A stretch of 64,000 bases of DNA from Actinomyces ruminicola (lineage in GTDB: Bacteria; Actinomycetota; Actinomycetes; Actinomycetales; Actinomycetaceae): positions 124,001 to 188,000 of the forward strand of contig NZ_FNIM01000001.1 of the NCBI RefSeq assembly GCF_900103885.1, read 5' to 3'. Positions 5,526 to 39,299 of this stretch are shown here, one piece after another (position 1 is the first letter of the stretch; the number at the start of each line of letters is the position of its first letter). The notes under the pieces are model-generated. The model did no database searches, had not been told where the DNA came from, and saw only the letters and a program-made list of their open reading frames with translations. The translations under genes and the position numbers were made by a program.

Positions 5526-6707
5526 TCAGGCGCTGGCGACCACGCTCGGGGAGGTACCCGCCAGGGCCTCCTCACCCAGCTCGGAGCGCATCTGCTCGGC
5601 CATGTCCTGGGCGTACTCCAGCAGCGTCTCGACCACCTGGTCCTCGGGGACGGTCTTGACGACCTTGCCGCGCACGAAGATCTGGCCCTTGCCGTTGCCG
5701 GAGGCGCAGCCGAGGTCGGCCTCGCGGGCCTCACCGGGGCCGTTGACCACGCAGCCCATCACGGCCACGCGCAGCGGGGCGGACACGTCCTTAAGGCCCT
5801 CCTCCACGGACTCGGCCAGTGACCACACGTCCACCTGGGCGCGCCCGCAGGACGGGCAGGAGACGATCTCCAGCTTGCGCTCGCGCAGCCCCATGAACTC
5901 CAGCAGCTTGGTGCCGACCTTGACCTCCTCCACGGGCGGGGCGGACAGGGACACCCGGATGGTGTCGCCGATGCCCTGGGCCAGCAGGATGCCGAAGGCG
6001 GCACAGGACTTGATGGTGCCCTGGAAGGCGGGGCCGGCCTCGGTCACGCCCAGGTGCAGGGGCCAGTCCCCCCGCTCGCTGAGCAGCTGATAGGCCTGCA
6101 CCATGGTGACCACGTCGTGGTGCTTGACGGAGATCTTGAAGTCGTGGAAGCCGCACTCCTCGAACAGGCTCGCCTCCCACACGGCGGACTCCACCAGCGC
6201 CTCGGGGGTGGCCTTGCCGTACTTCTTCAGCAGGCGCGGGTCCAGGGAGCCGGCGTTGACGCCGATGCGCAGGGAGGTGCCGTGGTCGGCGGCGGCCTTG
6301 CAGATCTCGGCGACCTTGTCGTCGAACTTGCGGATGTTGCCGGGGTTGACGCGCACGGCGCCGCAGCCGGCCTCGATGGCGGCGAAGACGTACTTGGGGT
6401 TGAAGTGGATGTCGGCGATGACCGGGATGCGCGACTGCTTGGCGATCACCGGCAGCGCAGCGGCGTCTTTGTCCGTGGGGCAGGCCACGCGCACGATGTC
6501 GCAGCCGGCGGCGGTGAGTTCGGCGATCTGCTGCAGGGTGGCGCCGATGTCGTGCGTCTTGGTGGTGGTCATCGACTGCACGGAGATGGGGGCGTCACCG
6601 CCTACGGCCACGTCGCCAACACGGATCTTGCGGGTGGGTTTGCGCGGGGCCAGCACCGGGGGCTCCTCGCGCACGGTCGGCATGCCTAGAGCGATCGCTT
6701 CTGTCAC
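5526..6707 (-). CDS. ispG: 4-hydroxy-3-methylbut-2-enyl diphosphate synthase (IspG/GcpE)
   Basis: IspG reduces MEcPP to HMBPP in the MEP isoprenoid pathway using a [4Fe-4S] cluster. The 393-residue protein has the bacterial two-domain layout: a TIM barrel carrying [18 protein letters not shown] and RVNPGNI, then the cluster domain. The cluster ligands are visible as C284 and C287 in SCPSCGR and C319 with the fourth ligand E326 in [10 protein letters not shown]. The GTG start at 6707 agrees with actinobacterial homologues, although the GGGAGG before it is unusually close. An internal ATG at codon 9 is the alternative. dxr of the same pathway lies two genes upstream. Confidence 0.97.
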
Positions 6708-6817
6708 GCCTCCCAGTATGGCACCGGGCGGGCCCCGCCGCGGAGCGGCCGGCTCACAAGGGGTGCGATTTGGCTCCCAGGGGCGGGCGCCTCGCGACCG
6801 CGGCGGGCCCGGGCGGC

Positions 6818-8134
6818 TCAGATGGGGGCGACGATATCCACCCAGATGAGGATCGCGGCCATGATGATCAGCAGGTAGAAGACCACCTGCCCGACCGGCA
6901 GCATCCGGGCGGTGTCGGCGTAGCCGGGGTCGGGGCGGCGGTGCGTGCGCGCCCAGACGCGCCTGATCCCCTCCCAGCAGGCACCGGCGACGTGTCCGCC
7001 GTCCAGCGGCAGCAGGGGGATCAGGTTGAAGGCGAACAGGGCCAGGTTCAGAGAGCCGAGCAGGTTCAGCATGTAGAACAGGCGCACGGACAGGGGCAGG
7101 CCCGTGCCCGTCCCGGCACCGGCGCTGCTCACCTCACCGGCGATGCGGCCCACCCCGACCAGGCTGACCAGGCCGTCGGGGCTGCGCTCCTCCAGGCCCA
7201 GCCCGGCGGCGACGGCGTGGTAGAGGCCGACCGGCAGCGTCACGATCGCCTTCAGGGTCTGGCCGACGGCGCTGCCCACCACCTGCGGAATATCGCCCGG
7301 GGACGTGCGCACGGTACCCAGGGAGGGGCCGATGCCCACGTAGGGGCGCAGCTGCGTCACCACCTCGCCGGAGTCGTCTGTAGTCGGGTTGCCCTCGGCG
7401 TCGTAGACGGTGCGGGGCACCTCCACGGCGGTGACTGTCAGATTCAGTTCCTGCCCGTCCCGGTCGACGACGACGGCGGCCGGCTCGGTTCCGGCGGCGG
7501 CGATGGCCGCCTGCACGTCCGCCCAGGTGGTGGTGGGGGTCCCGTCCCAGGAGGTGATCGTGTCGCCCGCCCGGAGCCCGGCTGCGGCGGCCGGGGAGGT
7601 GGGATCGGCGTCGGTGCAGGCGGCGCCGGCGTCAATATCGCTCGAGACGCACTCGGACACCGAGGACAGGGTGGCAGTGTAGGCGGGCTGGCCGACCACG
7701 CCCAGGGCGACGGTCAGGCAGATGATGCCCAGGGCCAGGTTGGTGAGGATGCCGCCGGCCATCACCAGCAGCTTGCGAGGGGTGCTCAGGCGGTAGAAGG
7801 CACGATCCTGCTCTCCGGGGCCGAGCTCGGACAGGGACTCCGCGCGCGCCTCGGCAATCATCGAACCGGGCTTGTCCGGGTGGTCGGCACGTGCCGGCGG
7901 CAGCATGCCCAGCAGCCGCACGTAGCCGCCCAGCCAGATGGCCTTGATGCCGTACTCGGTCTCCCCGCGCCGCGTGGACCAGAGTCTCGGGCCGAAGCCG
8001 ATGAAGTACTCGGGCACCTTCACGCCGAAGTGCTTGGCGGGCAGCATGTGCCCCAGCTCGTGCAGGGCGACCGACAGGCCGATCCCGATGATGAGGACGA
8101 TGACGCCCAGTACGTAGGCGAGGGTGTGGCTCAA
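6818..8134 (-). CDS. rip: M50 site-2 protease (Rip1/RseP family)
   Basis: An intramembrane zinc metalloprotease that cleaves transmembrane anti-sigma factors. In 438 residues it has the zinc motif HELGH at 25-29 in the first membrane helix, a periplasmic PDZ domain near residues 170-230 ([15 protein letters not shown]), and the third zinc ligand in LDGGH at about 377-381 followed by a final membrane helix. Its position between ispG and dxr matches rip in mycobacteria. It starts 12 bases downstream of the dxr stop codon, so the two are co-transcribed. The substrates cannot be read from the window. Confidence 0.95.
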
Positions 8135-34056: not shown

Positions 34057-35544
34057 TCAGATCTCCTCGTGCAGGCTCTCCTGGCGCAGGGCGGCCCGGT
34101 CCGCGGTCCACACGTCGCCGTCGAGCTCCCCGGGAAGCCAAGGGTTGCCGGGAGCGACGAACACCGGCTCGGCGACGCCGGAGCGCCGCTGGGCGTCGTA
34201 GTCCTTGAGCGTGGCCAGCACCCAGCCGGAAAGCCACAGCACGGCTATCAGGTTCAGGATCGTCATCAGGGCCAGGGCCACGTCGGCCATCGCCCAGGCC
34301 AGCTCCAGGGCGGCGAGCGCGCCGAGCCCCGTGGCCACGGTCATGGCCAGCCGCAGGGCGGTGCCGGCCCGGCGGCCGCCGCCGAGGTAGCTGACGTTGA
34401 TCTCAGCGAAGGTGGAGTACCCCAGCACCGAGGAGTAGGCGAAGGTGAGCACCACGAAGCTCATGAACCAGATGACCCAGTTGCCGGGCACGGCGTCGGC
34501 CAGCGCGTGCTGCACCAGGGTGGTCTTGGCCCACTGCGGCTCGACCCCGGGGGTGTAGACGGCCGGCGACGACAGCAGAATGGTCAGCCCCGTCGCGGTA
34601 CAGATCAGCAGGGTGTCCACGCACACGCCCAGCGCCTGAATGAGCCCCTGGGTGACGGGGTGGGCGACGTCCGCGGTGGCGGCCCCGTTCGGGGAGGAGC
34701 CCTGGCCGGCCTCGTTGGAGAACAGGCCGCGCTTGGTGCCGTTGAGGAAGGTGACGAAGATGCCACCGCCGGTGCCGGCCAGGCCGGAGCGCAGGTTGAG
34801 GGCGCCGGCGAAGATGTCGGCGAAGACGCCGGGAACCCGGTCGATGGACACGATGATGACCACGAGCACCACCACCAGGTAGGCCAGGGCCATCAGCGGC
34901 ACCAGCCACTCGGTCACCTTCGCCACCATCCGCATGCCGGCCAGGAGGATCGGGGCGGTCAGCACCATGAGCACGATCGCCGTGACCTGGGTGCTCACGC
35001 CGTGTGCCTCGGACAAAGTCTGGGCAATGGTGTTGGACTGCACCATCGGGAAGATCAGCCCGTAGGAGAACACGAGCATGACCGCGAAGACCACGCCCAT
35101 GCCCCGCCCCAGGGCACCGCGGCCGATGCCGCGCTGCATGTAGTAGGCCGGGCCGCCCCGGAAGATGCCGTCGGCGTTGCGGACCTTGAACACCTGGGCG
35201 AGGGTCGACTCGGCGAAGCTGGTGGCCATGCCGAGGATCGCCACCACCCACATCCACAGCAGGGCACCGGGGCCTCCGATGGTGACGGCTAGGGCCACGC
35301 CGGCGATGTTGCCGGTGCCCACGCGCCCGCCCAGGCCGATCACGAAGGCCTGAAAGCTGGACAGGGAGCCGCGCTGGTGGCGGGAGTGGGCGACCAGCCG
35401 GAGGGAGCGCACGAACAGCCGCAGCTGGACGGCGCGGGTGCGCACGGTCAGGTACAGGCCCGTACCCAGCAGGATCCAGACCAGGATGTTGCCGGAGACG
35501 AAGCCCTCGAAGCTGGACAGGGCGTCGGTGAGTGCAGCGGACAC
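34057..35544 (-). CDS. alanine/glycine:sodium symporter (AGCS family)
   Basis: A 495-residue membrane transporter with 10-11 helices. It imports alanine or glycine with Na+. Family motifs are visible: GLGGRVGTGNIAGVALAVTI near residues 70-90, GGPAYYMQRGIG, SNEAGQGSSPNGAATADVAHP and VFSYGLIFPMVQSNTI. The GTG start at 35544 begins SAALTDALSSFEGFVSGNI. The gene sits between rpsP and the DUF4276 gene with 164 bases before it, so it is probably transcribed separately. Confidence 0.94.
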   Translation of the reverse strand: MSAALTDALSSFEGFVSGNILVWILLGTGLYLTVRTRAVQLRLFVRSLRLVAHSRHQRGSLSSFQAFVIGLGGRVGTGNIAGVALAVTIGGPGALLWMWVVAILGMATSFAESTLAQVFKVRNADGIFRGGPAYYMQRGIGRGALGRGMGVVFAVMLVFSYGLIFPMVQSNTIAQTLSEAHGVSTQVTAIVLMVLTAPILLAGMRMVAKVTEWLVPLMALAYLVVVLVVIIVSIDRVPGVFADIFAGALNLRSGLAGTGGGIFVTFLNGTKRGLFSNEAGQGSSPNGAATADVAHPVTQGLIQALGVCVDTLLICTATGLTILLSSPAVYTPGVEPQWAKTTLVQHALADAVPGNWVIWFMSFVVLTFAYSSVLGYSTFAEINVSYLGGGRRAGTALRLAMTVATGLGALAALELAWAMADVALALMTILNLIAVLWLSGWVLATLKDYDAQRRSGVAEPVFVAPGNPWLPGELDGDVWTADRAALRQESLHEEI

Positions 35545-35708
35545 GGTGTTTCCGTCCGTCGGGGATGCGGGGCGGGTGTGAGGTTACCGCAGGCGGTGGC
35601 TACGGATGGCCGACGTGCAAAGAGTGGACGCCGCCGAAGCCACCGTCAAGGACGACCCAACGGGGCGAGAGCAGTCCAAACGCAGCATCCGCGCAGAACG
35701 GTGATATC

Positions 35709-36281
35709 TCAGCGCTTGTCTTCCAGTGCTGTCAGCAAAGCCCGTTCGAATGCTGCGAATGACGGGCTGCGCGTTCGGGCGGCCTCCAAGCTCATCACCC
35801 CTGTGAAGCGCGCCTGGTGGAGGGTCTCCTTGTAGGACTCCGTCATGAGTTCTTCCAGCCGCAGCTTGGCATTGCGGGGTCGCTCGGGATCGCCGTCGAA
35901 GCCTGCGTCATCGCGGATGGACGCATGAGAACGCAGCGATTCGATGGCGGCAAGGAACCATGCCTCATACTCCTTCACCGCCAGAGCGACCACCGCCTGA
36001 GTGTCTCCCAGAGCTTTCGAAGTCAGGCGCTGTGACTGCTCGGGATCATCGTCGTCGGCGTCGTACAGGACGATGACGACGCCGTCCTCACCTGCTCTGA
36101 GCCGTTGCATTTGGACAGCTGCAGCGACCTTGGTGCCGGTCATATCGGCGCGTGGAAGCCGGTGCGGCGAGAGGACCTTCACGTCGTAGTATCCACGTTC
36201 CTCTGCGATACGTCGTATGAGTACCGGGAGTGCCTTGACTTCGCCGTGTCCCTCAACTACAGATCCGACGCATGTACTCAT
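35709..36281 (-). CDS. DUF4276 family protein (TOPRIM-like)
   Basis: A 190-residue protein of the DUF4276 family, which adopts a TOPRIM-related fold. The first acidic motif is VVEGHGEVKALPVLIRRI (E10, E14). The second is VVIVLYDADDDD (D74, D76), followed by AVKEYEAWFLAAIESL (E104, E106). These match the E...DxD arrangement of TOPRIM nucleases. Its ATG overlaps the stop of the upstream ATPase gene (ATGA), so the two are translated together. Paired ATPase/TOPRIM proteins are typical of anti-phage modules such as PARIS, RloA/RloB and OLD. Activity against RNA, DNA or protein is not known for this family. Confidence 0.85.
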   Translation of the reverse strand: MSTCVGSVVEGHGEVKALPVLIRRIAEERGYYDVKVLSPHRLPRADMTGTKVAAAVQMQRLRAGEDGVVIVLYDADDDDPEQSQRLTSKALGDTQAVVALAVKEYEAWFLAAIESLRSHASIRDDAGFDGDPERPRNAKLRLEELMTESYKETLHQARFTGVMSLEAARTRSPSFAAFERALLTALEDKR

Positions 36282-37462
36282 GAAGCAACCGCCTCCTGCG
36301 TCTCTGGGTGGAGCTGATCGGCGCGCAGGAGCTCGCCCGCAGTAAACAAGGATTCCTTAAGGGCCAGGCGCGAGGCCTCATCGGGCCGGCTTACTTCGGT
36401 GGTGCCCTCGACAGATCGAACCGCGAGCAGCTCATCGGGACGAATCGATACCGAATCGAGGAGGTCCGGACTGTGGGTAGTAAGCAGCACCTGTCTCCTA
36501 TCGGAGGCGTCCCGAATCGCATCGAGGAGTATGCCGGCGGCAGCCGGGTGCAACGCGGTCTCCGGTTCCTCCACACCCACTGTTGACAACGTTGCGTCGG
36601 TTCCCGCGAACAGGGCCACCAGCACGCCCAGGGCGCGCAACGTGCCGTCGCTCATTGATGTTGCCTGGAAGGACCAGGGATTCGAAGCGCCCCGTACTTT
36701 CTGCTGAAACACCAGGGTCTCCCAGCGCGCAACCGCGAGCCGCCGCACCGATTCGACACCCGGGACGATTGAGCGCAAGTAGTCCTCGATCCGACGCTTC
36801 ACCTCTGGATTGGTGCGGTCCAGCCGCTCAATTACCGAGGCGATGTTTGAGCCGTCGCGGCGCAGCAGGTCCCCCGGATCCGGCGCGACGGGCCTACGCA
36901 TGGCATCTGGCGAGGGGCTAAACACCTCCATGGCTGACAATCCGTCATATACAGGCCGAAAGGCTTCGATGCCGGACAGCGAGACCAGTGCCAGCCTGTC
37001 CGTCGAGAGCCGCGGAAGGCGGTCCTCCGAAGTGGAAACCACCTCTCCGTCGCGGATCTCGTAGTGGTGCTCCTCGCTGCCGAAGTCCGTCGACCTGACC
37101 GCGCAGGCCTCCTTAGCCACGCGGAAGCCGCCACCGGAGACCGCCCCCACTTGAAACTCGTAGGTACCCGCCACATTTCCCGCGGACCCGAGGAAGTCAA
37201 CCGCGATCGTGAAATGCGTGGGATGCCCGGTGGAGCGCCTCCTCACCTCCGCGACTCCGCCGCGATCTCTGAGCGCGTTGTCGAGGTTCTCACCGAGCGC
37301 CTGCCGGACGAACCGCAGCGAGTCGAGCACATTCGACTTTCCGGAGCCGTTCGGTCCCACAAGGATGGCGAGCTTCCCGAGTTCCAGATCGCAGGAACGA
37401 ATGCTGCGATAGTTCTTCAACCGAAGACGACGCAGCCGAAAAGTGTGGCCGACCATGCCCAT
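36278..37462 (-). CDS. AAA (RecF/ABC-type) ATPase, partner of DUF4276
   Basis: A 394-residue ABC-like ATPase of the AAA_21 type. The N-terminus reads FRLRRLRLKNYRSIRSCDLE, then Walker A is GPNGSGKS at 36-43. The signature-like MSDGTLRALGVLVALF follows, Walker B VEEPETALHP is near 297-306, and the switch H-loop LTTHSPDLLD is near 326. There is no long coiled coil, unlike SMC or RecF proteins of DNA repair. No ribosome binding site precedes the start; an AT-rich TATAGC just upstream suggests a leaderless message. It overlaps DUF4276 by 4 bases and lies 34 bases after ffh. It probably senses a trigger and controls DUF4276. Confidence 0.88.
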   Translation of the reverse strand: MGMVGHTFRLRRLRLKNYRSIRSCDLELGKLAILVGPNGSGKSNVLDSLRFVRQALGENLDNALRDRGGVAEVRRRSTGHPTHFTIAVDFLGSAGNVAGTYEFQVGAVSGGGFRVAKEACAVRSTDFGSEEHHYEIRDGEVVSTSEDRLPRLSTDRLALVSLSGIEAFRPVYDGLSAMEVFSPSPDAMRRPVAPDPGDLLRRDGSNIASVIERLDRTNPEVKRRIEDYLRSIVPGVESVRRLAVARWETLVFQQKVRGASNPWSFQATSMSDGTLRALGVLVALFAGTDATLSTVGVEEPETALHPAAAGILLDAIRDASDRRQVLLTTHSPDLLDSVSIRPDELLAVRSVEGTTEVSRPDEASRLALKESLFTAGELLRADQLHPETQEAVAS

Positions 37463-37496
37463 AGGCTATACGAGTCCTGCCCCGGCCTCATGCTCC

Positions 37497-39200
37497 TCAG
37501 CCCAGACCCAGGTGGCGGCGCAGGTCTTCCGGCAGGGCGGCCATGGCGTCGGCGACCTCGTCGCCGGTGGCCTGCGGCTGCGCTGCGGTGGCCGCCTCCT
37601 GGTTCGGCATGATGCCGTAGCTCGCGCCAGCCGGGGTGGGGGCGGCGGGCTGCCCCAGCCCGAAGGCGGAGCCGGCCGGGGCGGGGGCGGGAGCCTCTAC
37701 CGCGCCCGCGGCCTTCTGCGCACGGGCGGCGGCGGCCTCGCGCGCCTGCCGGGCGGCCTTGGCCGGGTTGCCGGAGCGGCCCTTCTTGCCGCCCTTGCGC
37801 TTCTTGCCCTTGGGCGCCTGGCGGGCCTTGGCGCGCTTGCCCGTCGAGGGCAGCGAGCCCATGCCGGGCATGCCGCCGGGTCCGCCCAGGGCTCCCGGAC
37901 CACCGGCCGCCATCGCCTCCATCATCTTCTTGGCGGCCTCGAACCGATTCACCAGCTCGTTGACGGCCTGCACGGTGGTGCCCGAGCCCTTGGCGATGCG
38001 GGAGCGTCGCGAGCCGTTGAGGATGGACAGGTCCCGGCGCTCCGCCGGAGTCATGGAGCAGACGATCGCCTCGATGCGGTCGACCTCGCGCTCATCGAAG
38101 TTCTCCAGGGCCTCGCGCATCTGCCCCATTCCGGGCATCATGCCCAGCAGCTTCTTCATCGACCCCATCTTGCGGATCTGGCGCAGCTGGGACAGGAAGT
38201 CGTCGAGGGTGAAGGTGCCGGAGGCGAGCTTGGCGGCGGCGTCCTCGGCCTCCTTCTCGTCGAAGGCCCGCTCGGCCTGCTCGATCAGGGTCAGCAGGTC
38301 ACCCATGTCCAGGATGCGGGAGGCCATGCGGTCGGCGTGGAAGCGCTCGAAGTCGTCCAGCCCCTCACCCGTGGAGGAGAACAGCACGGGGGCGCCGGTC
38401 ACGCCGCGCACCGAAAGCGCGGCACCGCCGCGGGCGTCGCCGTCGAGCTTGGACAGCACCACTCCGGTGAAGCCGACGCCGTCGCGGAAGGCGACGGAGG
38501 TGTTGACGGCGTCCTGACCGACCATGGCGTCCAGGACGAACAGGATCTCGTGGGGGCCGACGGCGTCGCGGATGCGGATGGCCTGGTCCATCATCTCGGC
38601 GTCCACGCCCAGACGGCCGGCAGTGTCGATGACGACGACGTCGTAGCCGTTGGCGCGGGCCTGCTCGACGCCGCTGCGGGCCACCGCCACCGGGTCGCCC
38701 ACGCCGTTGCCCGGCTCGGGCGCCCACACGTCCACCCCGGCGCGCTCGGCAACCACGCTCAGCTGGGTGACGGCATTGGGACGCTGTAGGTCGGAGGCGA
38801 CCAGGAGGGTGCGCTTGCGCTCCTGCTTGAGCCAGCGGCCGAGCTTGCCCGCCAGCGTGGTCTTGCCGGCGCCCTGCAGGCCGGCCAGCATGATGACGGT
38901 GGGGCCGCGGTCGGCCCAGTTGAGCTCTCGGGACTGACCGCCCAGCACCTCGATGAGCTCGTCGTTGACAATGCGGACCACCTGCTGAGCCGGGTTCAGG
39001 GCCTGCGAGCGAGCGGCGTCCTTGGCCTTCTCCCGCACGGCGGCGGTGAAGGAGCGCACGACCGGCAGGGCGACATCGGCCTCCAGCAGGGCACGGCGGA
39101 TCTCGGAGACGGTGGCGTCGACGTCCGCTTCGCTCAGGCGGCCCTTGCCGCGCAGCGACTTGAACGAGGCGGTGAGCCGGTCGGAGAGGTTGCCGAACAC
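37497..39200 (-). CDS. ffh: signal recognition particle protein Ffh
   Basis: The SRP54 GTPase that brings nascent membrane proteins to FtsY. The 567-residue protein starts at the GTG at 39200 (FGNLSDRLTASFKSLRGKGR), with AGGAAGGA just before it. It has the N domain, the G domain with GLQGAGKTT at 107-115, DTAGRLGVDAEMMD and TKLDGDARGGAAL, then the methionine-rich M domain (KKLLGMMPGMGQM). A C-terminal tail of about 140 residues, rich in Gly, Pro and Lys, extends beyond the usual 450-residue length. Confidence 0.96.
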   Translation of the reverse strand: MFGNLSDRLTASFKSLRGKGRLSEADVDATVSEIRRALLEADVALPVVRSFTAAVREKAKDAARSQALNPAQQVVRIVNDELIEVLGGQSRELNWADRGPTVIMLAGLQGAGKTTLAGKLGRWLKQERKRTLLVASDLQRPNAVTQLSVVAERAGVDVWAPEPGNGVGDPVAVARSGVEQARANGYDVVVIDTAGRLGVDAEMMDQAIRIRDAVGPHEILFVLDAMVGQDAVNTSVAFRDGVGFTGVVLSKLDGDARGGAALSVRGVTGAPVLFSSTGEGLDDFERFHADRMASRILDMGDLLTLIEQAERAFDEKEAEDAAAKLASGTFTLDDFLSQLRQIRKMGSMKKLLGMMPGMGQMREALENFDEREVDRIEAIVCSMTPAERRDLSILNGSRRSRIAKGSGTTVQAVNELVNRFEAAKKMMEAMAAGGPGALGGPGGMPGMGSLPSTGKRAKARQAPKGKKRKGGKKGRSGNPAKAARQAREAAAARAQKAAGAVEAPAPAPAGSAFGLGQPAAPTPAGASYGIMPNQEAATAAQPQATGDEVADAMAALPEDLRRHLGLG

Positions 39201-39299
39201 GCGGGGTCCTTCCTTGGCGCTGAGGCGCAGGTGGTTTAGGGGCTGACCGGTGTGCCCCGCCGGAGCCCGGAGCAGCACACCGCACGACCCAGGATAGCG

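What the first reader, a model, noticed from the sequence alone, without database searches (positions are those of the whole stretch)
35709..37462. Coupled ABC-type ATPase and DUF4276 TOPRIM-like pair: candidate anti-phage module
The sequence shows an ATPase with Walker A, signature, Walker B and H-loop, overlapping by 4 bases a DUF4276 protein with an intact E...DxD acidic set. The pair sits between ffh and rpsP, which are neighbours in many genomes. Known defence systems PARIS (AriA/AriB), RloA/RloB and OLD/Gabija use the same ATPase plus TOPRIM logic. To my knowledge DUF4276 has no established biochemical role in such a system; this is inference.
Basis: partly seen in the sequence, partly recalled or inferred. 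Interest (0 to 1): 0.65.

Follow-up and report, generated by a model that had tools for sequence, protein, structure and literature searches.

The report
ATPase–Toprim pair, known defence candidate HEC-01
Two overlapping bacterial genes encode an ATPase and a small nuclease-like protein that probably work together as a cell-sacrificing defence against viruses; the pair belongs to a catalogued but little-studied candidate defence family.

Summary
An OLD-type ABC ATPase gene overlaps a DUF4276 gene by 4 bases, just downstream of ffh. Both proteins best match one catalogued candidate: PADLOC HEC-01A (E 1e-156) and HEC-01B (E 7e-59). So this is a member of 'Hma-embedded candidate 01', not a new system.

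Its acids have the spacing of the published OLD two-metal site (E-x3-E, DxD, x-x-E), conserved in 41 HEC-01B-like sequences, though the second D is lost in some more distant DUF4276 branches. (2) The ATPase gene is immediately upstream at 46 of 47 testable loci. (3) In the genus the pair is patchy (9 of 49 genomes), sits at one site beside ffh, is missing there in the nearest relatives, and shows exchange and decay: accessory, not housekeeping. (4) It has its own start signal, TAgnnT-N6-ATG, so the ATPase start is probably 37456. (5) Elsewhere some copies lie inside Hma and type III R-M operons or near Gabija.

Most likely mechanism: the ATPase restrains the Toprim nuclease until infection, then it cuts nucleic acid and stops the cell. 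Substrate, trigger and anti-phage activity are inferred.

The parts
36278..37456 (-). HEC-01A-type OLD-class ABC ATPase (start corrected; ORF as listed begins 37462)
   Evidence: PADLOC PDLC04178 E 1.2e-156; Pfam AAA_21/AAA_15; closest PDB sequence TsOLD 6p74 E 1.2e-22; start
35709..36281 (-). HEC-01B-type DUF4276 protein, predicted OLD-like Toprim nuclease
   Evidence: PADLOC PDLC04196 E 7.3e-59; Pfam DUF4276 60 bits; AF2 pLDDT 96.6; top PDB folds are OLD Toprim domains
36278..36281 (-). 4-base start/stop overlap of the two genes
37463..37468 (-). TAGCCT, predicted -10 box of a leaderless promoter, 6 bases before the ATG at 37456
   Evidence: TAnnnT at this exact offset in 10 of 10 loci; the start was re-chosen with the motif in view for two of them, the window and L040
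37334..37357 (-). Walker A, GPNGSGKS
   Evidence: G36, N38, G41, K42, S43 identical in 34 of 34 sequences; coordinates checked
36560..36580 (-). Walker B region VGVEEPE
   Evidence: E299 in 33 of 34, P300 and E301 in 34 of 34
36252..36254 (-). codon of E10, Toprim glutamate; E14 follows at x3 spacing
   Evidence: E10 in 40 of 40 non-gap rows, E14 E/D in 38 of 41
36054..36062 (-). codons of D74-A75-D76, Toprim DxD
   Evidence: D74 41 of 41; D76 D 37, E 4 of 41
35964..35966 (-). codon of E106, candidate metal-B ligand in E-Y-E-A-W
   Evidence: E106 and W108 41 of 41
35637..37495 (.). stretch absent from the matching site of the close relative G047
   Evidence: homology to L076 stops at 37496 (Ffh stop) and resumes at 35636
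37497..39278 (-). ffh (flank)
34057..35544 (-). AlsT-like symporter gene (flank)
   Evidence: family name by my reading of the protein

Best explanation
The pair is a HEC-01 module: a mobile two-gene defence unit of the ATPase-plus-Toprim kind. HEC-01A is an OLD-class ABC ATPase and HEC-01B a free-standing Toprim nuclease with a two-metal site (E10, D74, D76 for metal A; E14 and E106 for metal B, by analogy with OLD). The two are made together from one own leaderless promoter. The ATPase binds and restrains the nuclease. On infection, an unknown phage trigger or a failing restriction system makes the ATPase release or activate it, and it cuts RNA or DNA so that the cell stops growing and the phage is not multiplied. 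Shown here: gene pairing, fold prediction, conservation of the site in this branch, patchy distribution at one locus, examples of placement in restriction operons elsewhere. Inferred: promoter activity, complex formation, trigger, substrate, abortive outcome.
For: PADLOC HEC-01A and HEC-01B are the best models by far. ATPase directly upstream of DUF4276, same strand, at 46 of 47 loci with enough sequence: 45 by script plus L161 by eye. Predicted fold of HEC-01B: the five best Foldseek hits in PDB are OLD C-terminal regions; 6nk8_B Z 9.5, rmsd 4.0, 163 aligned. Bp OLD metal ligands E400/E404, D455/D457, T506/E508 (PMC6755086, passages) have the same spacing as E10/E14, D74/D76, E104/E106, conserved in 41 selected sequences. 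ATPase profile: TsOLD 1.2e-22, then retron/Septu PtuA, GajA, SMC and AriA (1.4e-10) in PDB. Embedded between HmaA and HmaB (L123), inside a type III R-M operon (L171), between a MTase and an Mrr-like gene (L169), about 1.1 kb from GajAB (L165). Accessory in the genus: 9 of 49, absent at the same site in close relatives, low GC3 (0.68/0.75 against 0.84-0.95). In print, AAA/TOPRIM_OLD pairs act as antitoxin/toxin (PMC10440598, passages) and PARIS AriA/AriB as sensor and tRNase (PMC9122126, PMC12409363, PMC12839542, passages).
Against: The fold match is moderate (TM 0.42-0.50; unrelated chains reach Z 8.4), and a DUF4276 profile finds no Toprim chain in PDB by sequence. The 41 sequences were chosen because they match the genus profile; in 12 further, more distant DUF4276 genes the DxD is kept in only 5, though the E-A-W glutamate is in all 12. 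Next to the window copy I saw no other defence gene (immediate flanks only). Of 10 chromosomal loci whose neighbours I sampled, 2 gave strong PADLOC hits, and no control was run. No trigger, toxicity or protection was tested.
Confidence: 0.62

Rival explanations
1. A toxin-antitoxin-like addiction pair whose main effect is its own persistence: the ATPase neutralises a toxic Toprim nuclease, and phage defence is incidental.
For: AAA/TOPRIM_OLD pairs behave as toxin-antitoxin in E. coli (PMC10440598, passages). Decay is lopsided: the ATPase gene persists while the DUF4276 gene is broken in G015 and not detected in G041 and G074, whereas no intact DUF4276 gene without the ATPase was seen among 47 testable loci.
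Against: PARIS, a characterised analogue, is not toxic when either gene is deleted (PMC9122126, passages). Some copies are embedded in restriction operons. Few decayed cases; in G038 both genes are damaged.
Confidence: 0.15
2. A direct DNA-degrading system like OLD/Gabija, in which the ATPase controls a DNase that destroys invading DNA rather than arresting the cell through RNA cleavage.
For: Best structural matches of HEC-01B are DNA-cleaving OLD Toprim domains (activity from PMC6755086 and PMC7049728, passages), ahead of AriB (Foldseek rank 32, VIA Z 6.7).
Against: AriB and RNase M5, both RNases, use a similar site geometry, so fold does not decide the substrate; the split two-gene layout is that of PARIS, not Gabija.
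Confidence: 0.15
3. A chromosomal repair or housekeeping function of a RecF/SMC-like ATPase and its partner.
For: Structural similarity of the ATPase to SMC/Rad50 heads (VIA Z up to 22).
Against: Present in only 9 of 49 genus genomes, broken in some, incongruent with core genes, atypical GC3.
Confidence: 0.03

Closest known systems
HEC-01 (Hma-embedded candidate 01, PADLOC-DB 2.0.0)
   Same: Both proteins match its models at E 1e-156 and 7e-59; the next-best models are HEC-01A and HEC-01B too; same two-gene order; one family member found here lies between hmaA and hmaB (L123).
   Different: In the window it stands alone at ffh, not in an Hma operon. HEC systems are listed under 'Unknown' mechanism in PMC10855318 (passage).
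PARIS (AriA/AriB)
   Same: Separate OLD-type ATPase and small Toprim protein; weaker structural match to AriB (8ux9_A, Z 6.7).
   Different: PARIS is defined by DUF4435 (PMC9122126, passages); here no DUF4435 match, DUF4276 instead.
OLD nucleases and Gabija GajA
   Same: ATPase profile; Toprim-like predicted fold; same metal-ligand spacing.
   Different: There ATPase and Toprim are one protein, and Gabija has a helicase partner; here two proteins, no helicase beside them.
RloA/RloB and AbiL
   Same: ATPase paired with a Toprim-related partner, in or near R-M operons (PMC10440598, passages).
   Different: No Pfam family but DUF4276 for the partner; the ATPase matches AbiLi only at E 5e-24, far below HEC-01A.
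MADS (MAD3 ATPase)
   Same: ATPase distantly related (118.7 bits).
   Different: Far below the NCBIfam cut-off of 420.

Membership tests
HEC-01 (PADLOC) | ATPase best matches HEC-01A model | tested here: met
   PDLC04178 E 1.2e-156 over residues 7-390; next model, also HEC-01A, 8e-49. PADLOC's own cut-offs were not shown
HEC-01 (PADLOC) | partner best matches HEC-01B model | tested here: met
   PDLC04196 E 7.3e-59 over residues 2-187; next, also HEC-01B, 1.5e-40
HEC-01 (PADLOC) | the two genes adjacent and co-directional | tested here: met
   4-base overlap in the window; 46 of 47 testable DUF4276 loci elsewhere
HEC-01 (PADLOC) | embedded in an Hma system (origin of the name) | tested here: not met
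   the window copy lies between ffh and an AlsT-like gene; met for a relative, L123 (HmaA, pair, HmaB, HmaC). I take this as the origin of the name, not as a requirement
HEC-01 (PADLOC) | antiviral activity | not testable with these tools
   source preprint 10.1101/2024.01.29.577857 not held; PMC12988326 says several HECs are active and names HEC-06 only (passage)
PARIS | DUF4435 (AriB) partner | tested here: not met
   only DUF4276 found in Pfam at E <= 0.1; definition in PMC9122126
PARIS | effector and ATPase encoded by separate genes | tested here: met
RloAB | RloB-family partner | tested here: not met
   no Pfam family but DUF4276 at E <= 0.1
Gabija / OLD class 1-2 | ATPase and Toprim in one protein (plus GajB helicase for Gabija) | tested here: not met
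   two genes; flanks are ffh and an AlsT-like gene
OLD-type Toprim nuclease | two-metal ligands E-x3-E/D, DxD, x-x-E | tested here: met
   met for the window protein and its branch: spacing and conservation in 41 sequences against PMC6755086 and PMC7049728; DxD not kept in 7 of 12 distant DUF4276 genes; 3D clustering not measured
OLD-type Toprim nuclease | fold | tested here: inconclusive
   OLD domains are the top hits, but TM is 0.42-0.50 and Z 7.7-9.5 while unrelated folds reach 8.4
OLD-type Toprim nuclease | metal-dependent nuclease activity | not testable with these tools
   needs purified protein
MADS | MAD3 over NCBIfam cut-off | tested here: not met
   118.7 bits, cut-off 420

The most novel reading that the evidence does not exclude
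HEC-01 is a widespread second guard of restriction systems: a DUF4276 Toprim nuclease, distinct from DUF4435 and RloB, unleashed by its ATPase when a phage inhibits or evades restriction. That would explain why unrelated restriction types (Hma, type III R-M, MTase/Mrr-like loci) carry it inside their operons, and would extend PARIS-like logic to an unstudied effector family.
Probability: 0.22. Interest if true: 0.65.

Novelty: new member of a known kind. Interest (0 to 1): 0.4.

Why it matters
Neither DUF4276 nor PF14103 appears in the open-licence PMC library searched. Giving this branch an OLD-type two-metal site makes point mutants and substrate assays directly testable, and its placement inside several restriction operons offers a concrete trigger hypothesis for a candidate system of unknown mechanism.

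Tried and rejected
Viral contigs: a scan with the DUF4276 alignment found no relative. The one 'phage' record with the gene (MT835995) is an UNVERIFIED fecal contig; of 7 other ORFs scanned, 2 gave Pfam hits, both transporters, 5 gave none. I take it as probably bacterial and do not count it as phage carriage.

Apparent DUF4276 fusion in L147/G166: rejected. The open frame runs on past the domain through sequence that also reads as an ORF on the other strand, and its ATPase looks decayed.

Sequence-level link of DUF4276 to Toprim in PDB: a profile search found nothing meaningful. Single-sequence phmmer gave a weak hit to a chain named OT3 (E 0.0009) in two low-scoring repeats, judged to be chance.

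Defence hotspot at ffh-rpsP: not established. Recurrent genes there include a two-component system and an ABC transporter; among the ORFs I scanned, only G038 has an R-M pair there. Not all ORFs of the interval were scanned, and no control for defence neighbours was run. My gene calls in neighbours are ORF heuristics, so some 'no hit' proteins may not be real genes.

Further neighbours scanned with Pfam: L122 none, L129 a sulfatase, L132 an AAA-domain ATPase directly upstream of the pair.

Literature: DUF4276 and PF14103 gave 0 papers; HEC-01 gave 5 listings, of which I opened only PMC12724379 (one passage, lists HEC-01 in D. piger); the other four look unrelated by title. Other HEC names gave 13 listings, of which I opened PMC12988326; 'guilt-by-embedding' gave 4, of which I saw passages of PMC12988326, PMC12255303 and PMC10855318. 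A MADS search found none. Passages of PMC10568477 were seen as background.

Dropped rows: the 41-row alignment leaves out L113-L115 (same genomes as rows already in), the broken copies in L034 and L039, the partial L131 and L133, and 15 class loci with no or fragmentary match to the genus profile; I looked at those 15 afterwards. The leaderless-start count leaves out L034 (frameshifted), L038 (contig edge) and L010/L042 (G074). Two starts were re-chosen with the motif in view: the window (37462 to 37456, which also fits the protein alignment) and L040 (TTG to the GTG 6 bases on). In one search, 12 of 21 sequences lacked the motif: L040 at its first-called start and 11 loci outside the genus whose starts are uncertain. 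L118, L131 and L143 were too close to contig ends for the pairing count.

Full report
What is there. On the minus strand an ATPase ORF (36278-37462) and a DUF4276 ORF (35709-36281) share four bases. Pfam gives AAA_21/AAA_15 and DUF4276 above their cut-offs. PADLOC-DB names both: HEC-01A at E 1.2e-156 and HEC-01B at 7.3e-59; the next-best models are again HEC-01A (8e-49) and HEC-01B (1.5e-40), and the best outside HEC-01 are PDC-M07A (2e-40) and PDC-M25B (8e-5). HEC stands for Hma-embedded candidate (PMC12988326, passages), from a 2024 preprint that is not held.

Pairing. I tested 50 DUF4276 loci: 21 from genome contigs and 29 from a class-wide Pfam search, own locus left out (that search matched 29 of 394 genomes, 25 over the cut-off, own included). 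A same-strand ATPase lies directly upstream in 45 by script. L161 is a 46th by eye: its match covers only part of the gene, so the gap test failed. L152, a fragment, lacks it. Three loci lie at contig ends.

The DUF4276 protein. AlphaFold2 with 36 sequences gives pLDDT 96.6, pTM 0.91. The five best Foldseek hits in PDB are C-terminal regions of OLD nucleases (E 3.8e-4 to 1.4e-3, TM 0.42-0.50); PARIS AriB (8ux9_A) is rank 32 at E 0.11. VIA-align gives 6nk8_B Z 9.5, rmsd 4.0, 163 aligned; 6njv Z 8.2, rmsd 4.3, 165; 6p74 Z 7.7, rmsd 4.3, 135; 8ux9_A Z 6.7, rmsd 5.0, 158; but a riboflavin synthase and a channel reach Z 8.4 and 8.2 with about 120 aligned. So the fold match alone is moderate. What lifts it is the active site. 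In Bp OLD, E400, D455, D457 serve metal A and E404, T506, E508 metal B (PMC6755086, passages); Ts OLD has the equivalent set (PMC7049728, passages). HEC-01B has E10-x3-E14 after the first strand, D74-x-D76 at the end of a strand and E104-x-E106 at the start of a helix. Over 41 sequences with 18-75% identity to the window protein: E10 40 of 40 non-gap, E14 36 E + 2 D of 41, D74 41 of 41, D76 37 D + 4 E, E106 41 of 41. Equating these residues with the OLD ligands is my inference from register; distances could not be measured.

A limit of that count. The 41 rows were picked by their match to the genus profile. Of 15 class loci left out, 12 show the region: D-x-D stands in 5 (L144, L147, L151, L154, L157) and is changed in 7 (L134 and L135 read DYY, L153 DGA, L155, L156, L160 and L161 NDH), while the E-A-W (or E-N-W) glutamate is in all 12; where the N-terminus is in view the first E is in 10 of 10 and E/D at +4 in 9 (by eye). 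So the full OLD-like set is a feature of the HEC-01B-like branch, not of every protein that Pfam calls DUF4276.

The ATPase. pLDDT 92.8. Its profile finds Ts OLD first (1.2e-22), then retron and Septu PtuA, GajA, SMC and AriA among 107 PDB sequences at E <= 0.001, the best 60 shown. Fold neighbours by VIA are SMC/Rad50 heads and PtuA, Z 19-22 in the 50 rows shown. Walker A G36, N38, G41, K42, S43 are identical in 34 of 34; E299 33 of 34; H330 30 of 34, Q in the other 4; S-D-G-T stands for the signature.

Distribution in relatives. The genus is Actinomyces by named contigs of identical length (A. dentalis, A. oricola, A. bowdenii). DUF4276 relatives occur in 10 of 99 genomes searched, own included, and in 9 of 49 genus genomes. 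In 8 of these 9, own included, ffh lies within 1.7 kb upstream; in the ninth, G039, the contig ends by the ATPase gene, but rpsP lies downstream at the usual side. In G024, G035 and G032 an amidohydrolase-like ORF sits between ffh and the pair (Pfam on the G024 copy). The six closest genomes by RpsP (G012, G014, G045, G047, G030, G005) lack the pair. In G047 the window's homology stops at the Ffh stop codon (37496) and resumes at 35636; G014, G045 and G030 have there an unrelated ORF of 520-540 aa, without a Pfam match in the one scanned. GC3 of the pair is 0.68 and 0.75 against 0.84-0.95 for five neighbours. The window's ATPase is 87% and 85% identical to those of G018 and G038 and 68% to those of G022 and G015, while FtsY (75/78 against 82/83) and RimM (67/64 against 74/76) rank the other way; Ffh does not discriminate (86/85 against 84/86). 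Exchange at a fixed site explains this; old paralogues with differential loss could too. No tree was built.

Decay. G015 keeps the ATPase ORF but its DUF4276 gene is interrupted; G038 has both genes damaged; G041 and G074 carry an ATPase with no DUF4276 detected. The lopsided loss fits an effector that is harmful without its partner, but cases are few.

Expression. In 10 of 10 loci (window, seven genus relatives, G077 and MT835995) TAnnnT stands exactly 12 bases before the start codon, in otherwise unalignable upstream sequence; at 182 other offsets the most was 1. For two of the ten, the window and L040, I re-chose the start with the motif in view. This looks like a leaderless promoter carried by the pair, and puts the ATPase start at 37456. 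A single such match in the window is not rare by chance; the evidence is the conserved position. Eleven other loci lack it at their called starts.

Surroundings elsewhere. In a Rubrivivax MAG the pair lies between HmaA and HmaB, with HmaC after: the arrangement that named the family. In Isoptericola an AbiD-like gene precedes it and a SoFic gene lies near. Of 10 chromosomal loci from which I sampled 20 large or near ORFs, these 2 gave hits at E <= 1e-20 and 8 gave none. Of 15 plasmid records with a DUF4276 hit I opened 8: four lie inside or near restriction or defence genes, namely type III Mod and Res on either side (A. veronii pHX3), a MTase and an Mrr-like gene (Ideonella), a DrmD-like helicase and a methylase (A. 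media), and GajA/GajB about 1.1 kb on (Streptomyces NBC_00445); one follows vapBC; three show nothing evident. No control set was run, so this is support by example, not a measured enrichment.

Mechanism. In print, AAA/TOPRIM_OLD pairs neutralise as antitoxin/toxin (PMC10440598, passages). PARIS needs both genes and both active sites, and deleting either is non-toxic (PMC9122126, passages). AriB is a two-metal RNase cutting tRNA (PMC12409363, passages and section 24). From these and the anatomy I infer an ATPase-held Toprim nuclease released on infection. Whether it cuts tRNA, other RNA or DNA is open.

Verdict. Real, a member of a catalogued candidate family, with a better-founded nuclease assignment for this branch, a corrected start and a clear accessory history.

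Noticed in passing
L034 (G038) 6033-7834: A C5 methyltransferase and a type II restriction enzyme (PADLOC REase_II) sit right after a damaged HEC-01 pair at the same ffh site.
   Followed up: partly
L126 2-4419 (Akkermansiaceae MAG): Two ATPase plus DUF4276 pairs in tandem, one divergent, one closer to the window's type.
   Followed up: no
L014-L021 (genus and family relatives): Of 8 loci with an ATPase about 30% identical to the window's, 4 have a partner matching the DUF4276 profile (L016, L019, L020, L021), 2 a partner starting VEGQTEE (L015, L017), 1 a short open frame of that type (L018), 1 none seen (L014): apparently several related pair families.
   Followed up: partly
L153 1-1959 (G181): ATPase and DUF4276-like region in one open frame of 652 aa, perhaps a natural fusion, but without the N-terminal EG..E/D motif.
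   Followed up: no
L134, L135 (best Pfam DUF4276 scorers in the class): Their DxD reads DYY, so the best-scoring DUF4276 proteins of the class may use a different metal site or be inactive.
   Followed up: no
L077 3522-5144 and equivalents in L074, L075: In close relatives the ffh-alsT site holds an antisense 520-540-aa ORF; the L077 copy has no Pfam match.
   Followed up: partly
L164 (MT835995): Record labelled 'Bacteriophage sp.' (UNVERIFIED) carries the pair with two transporter genes and no phage family among 7 ORFs scanned; probably mislabelled bacterial DNA.
   Followed up: partly
L110, L111 (G040): Two rpsP-like genes in one genome, 65-68% identical to the window's.
   Followed up: no
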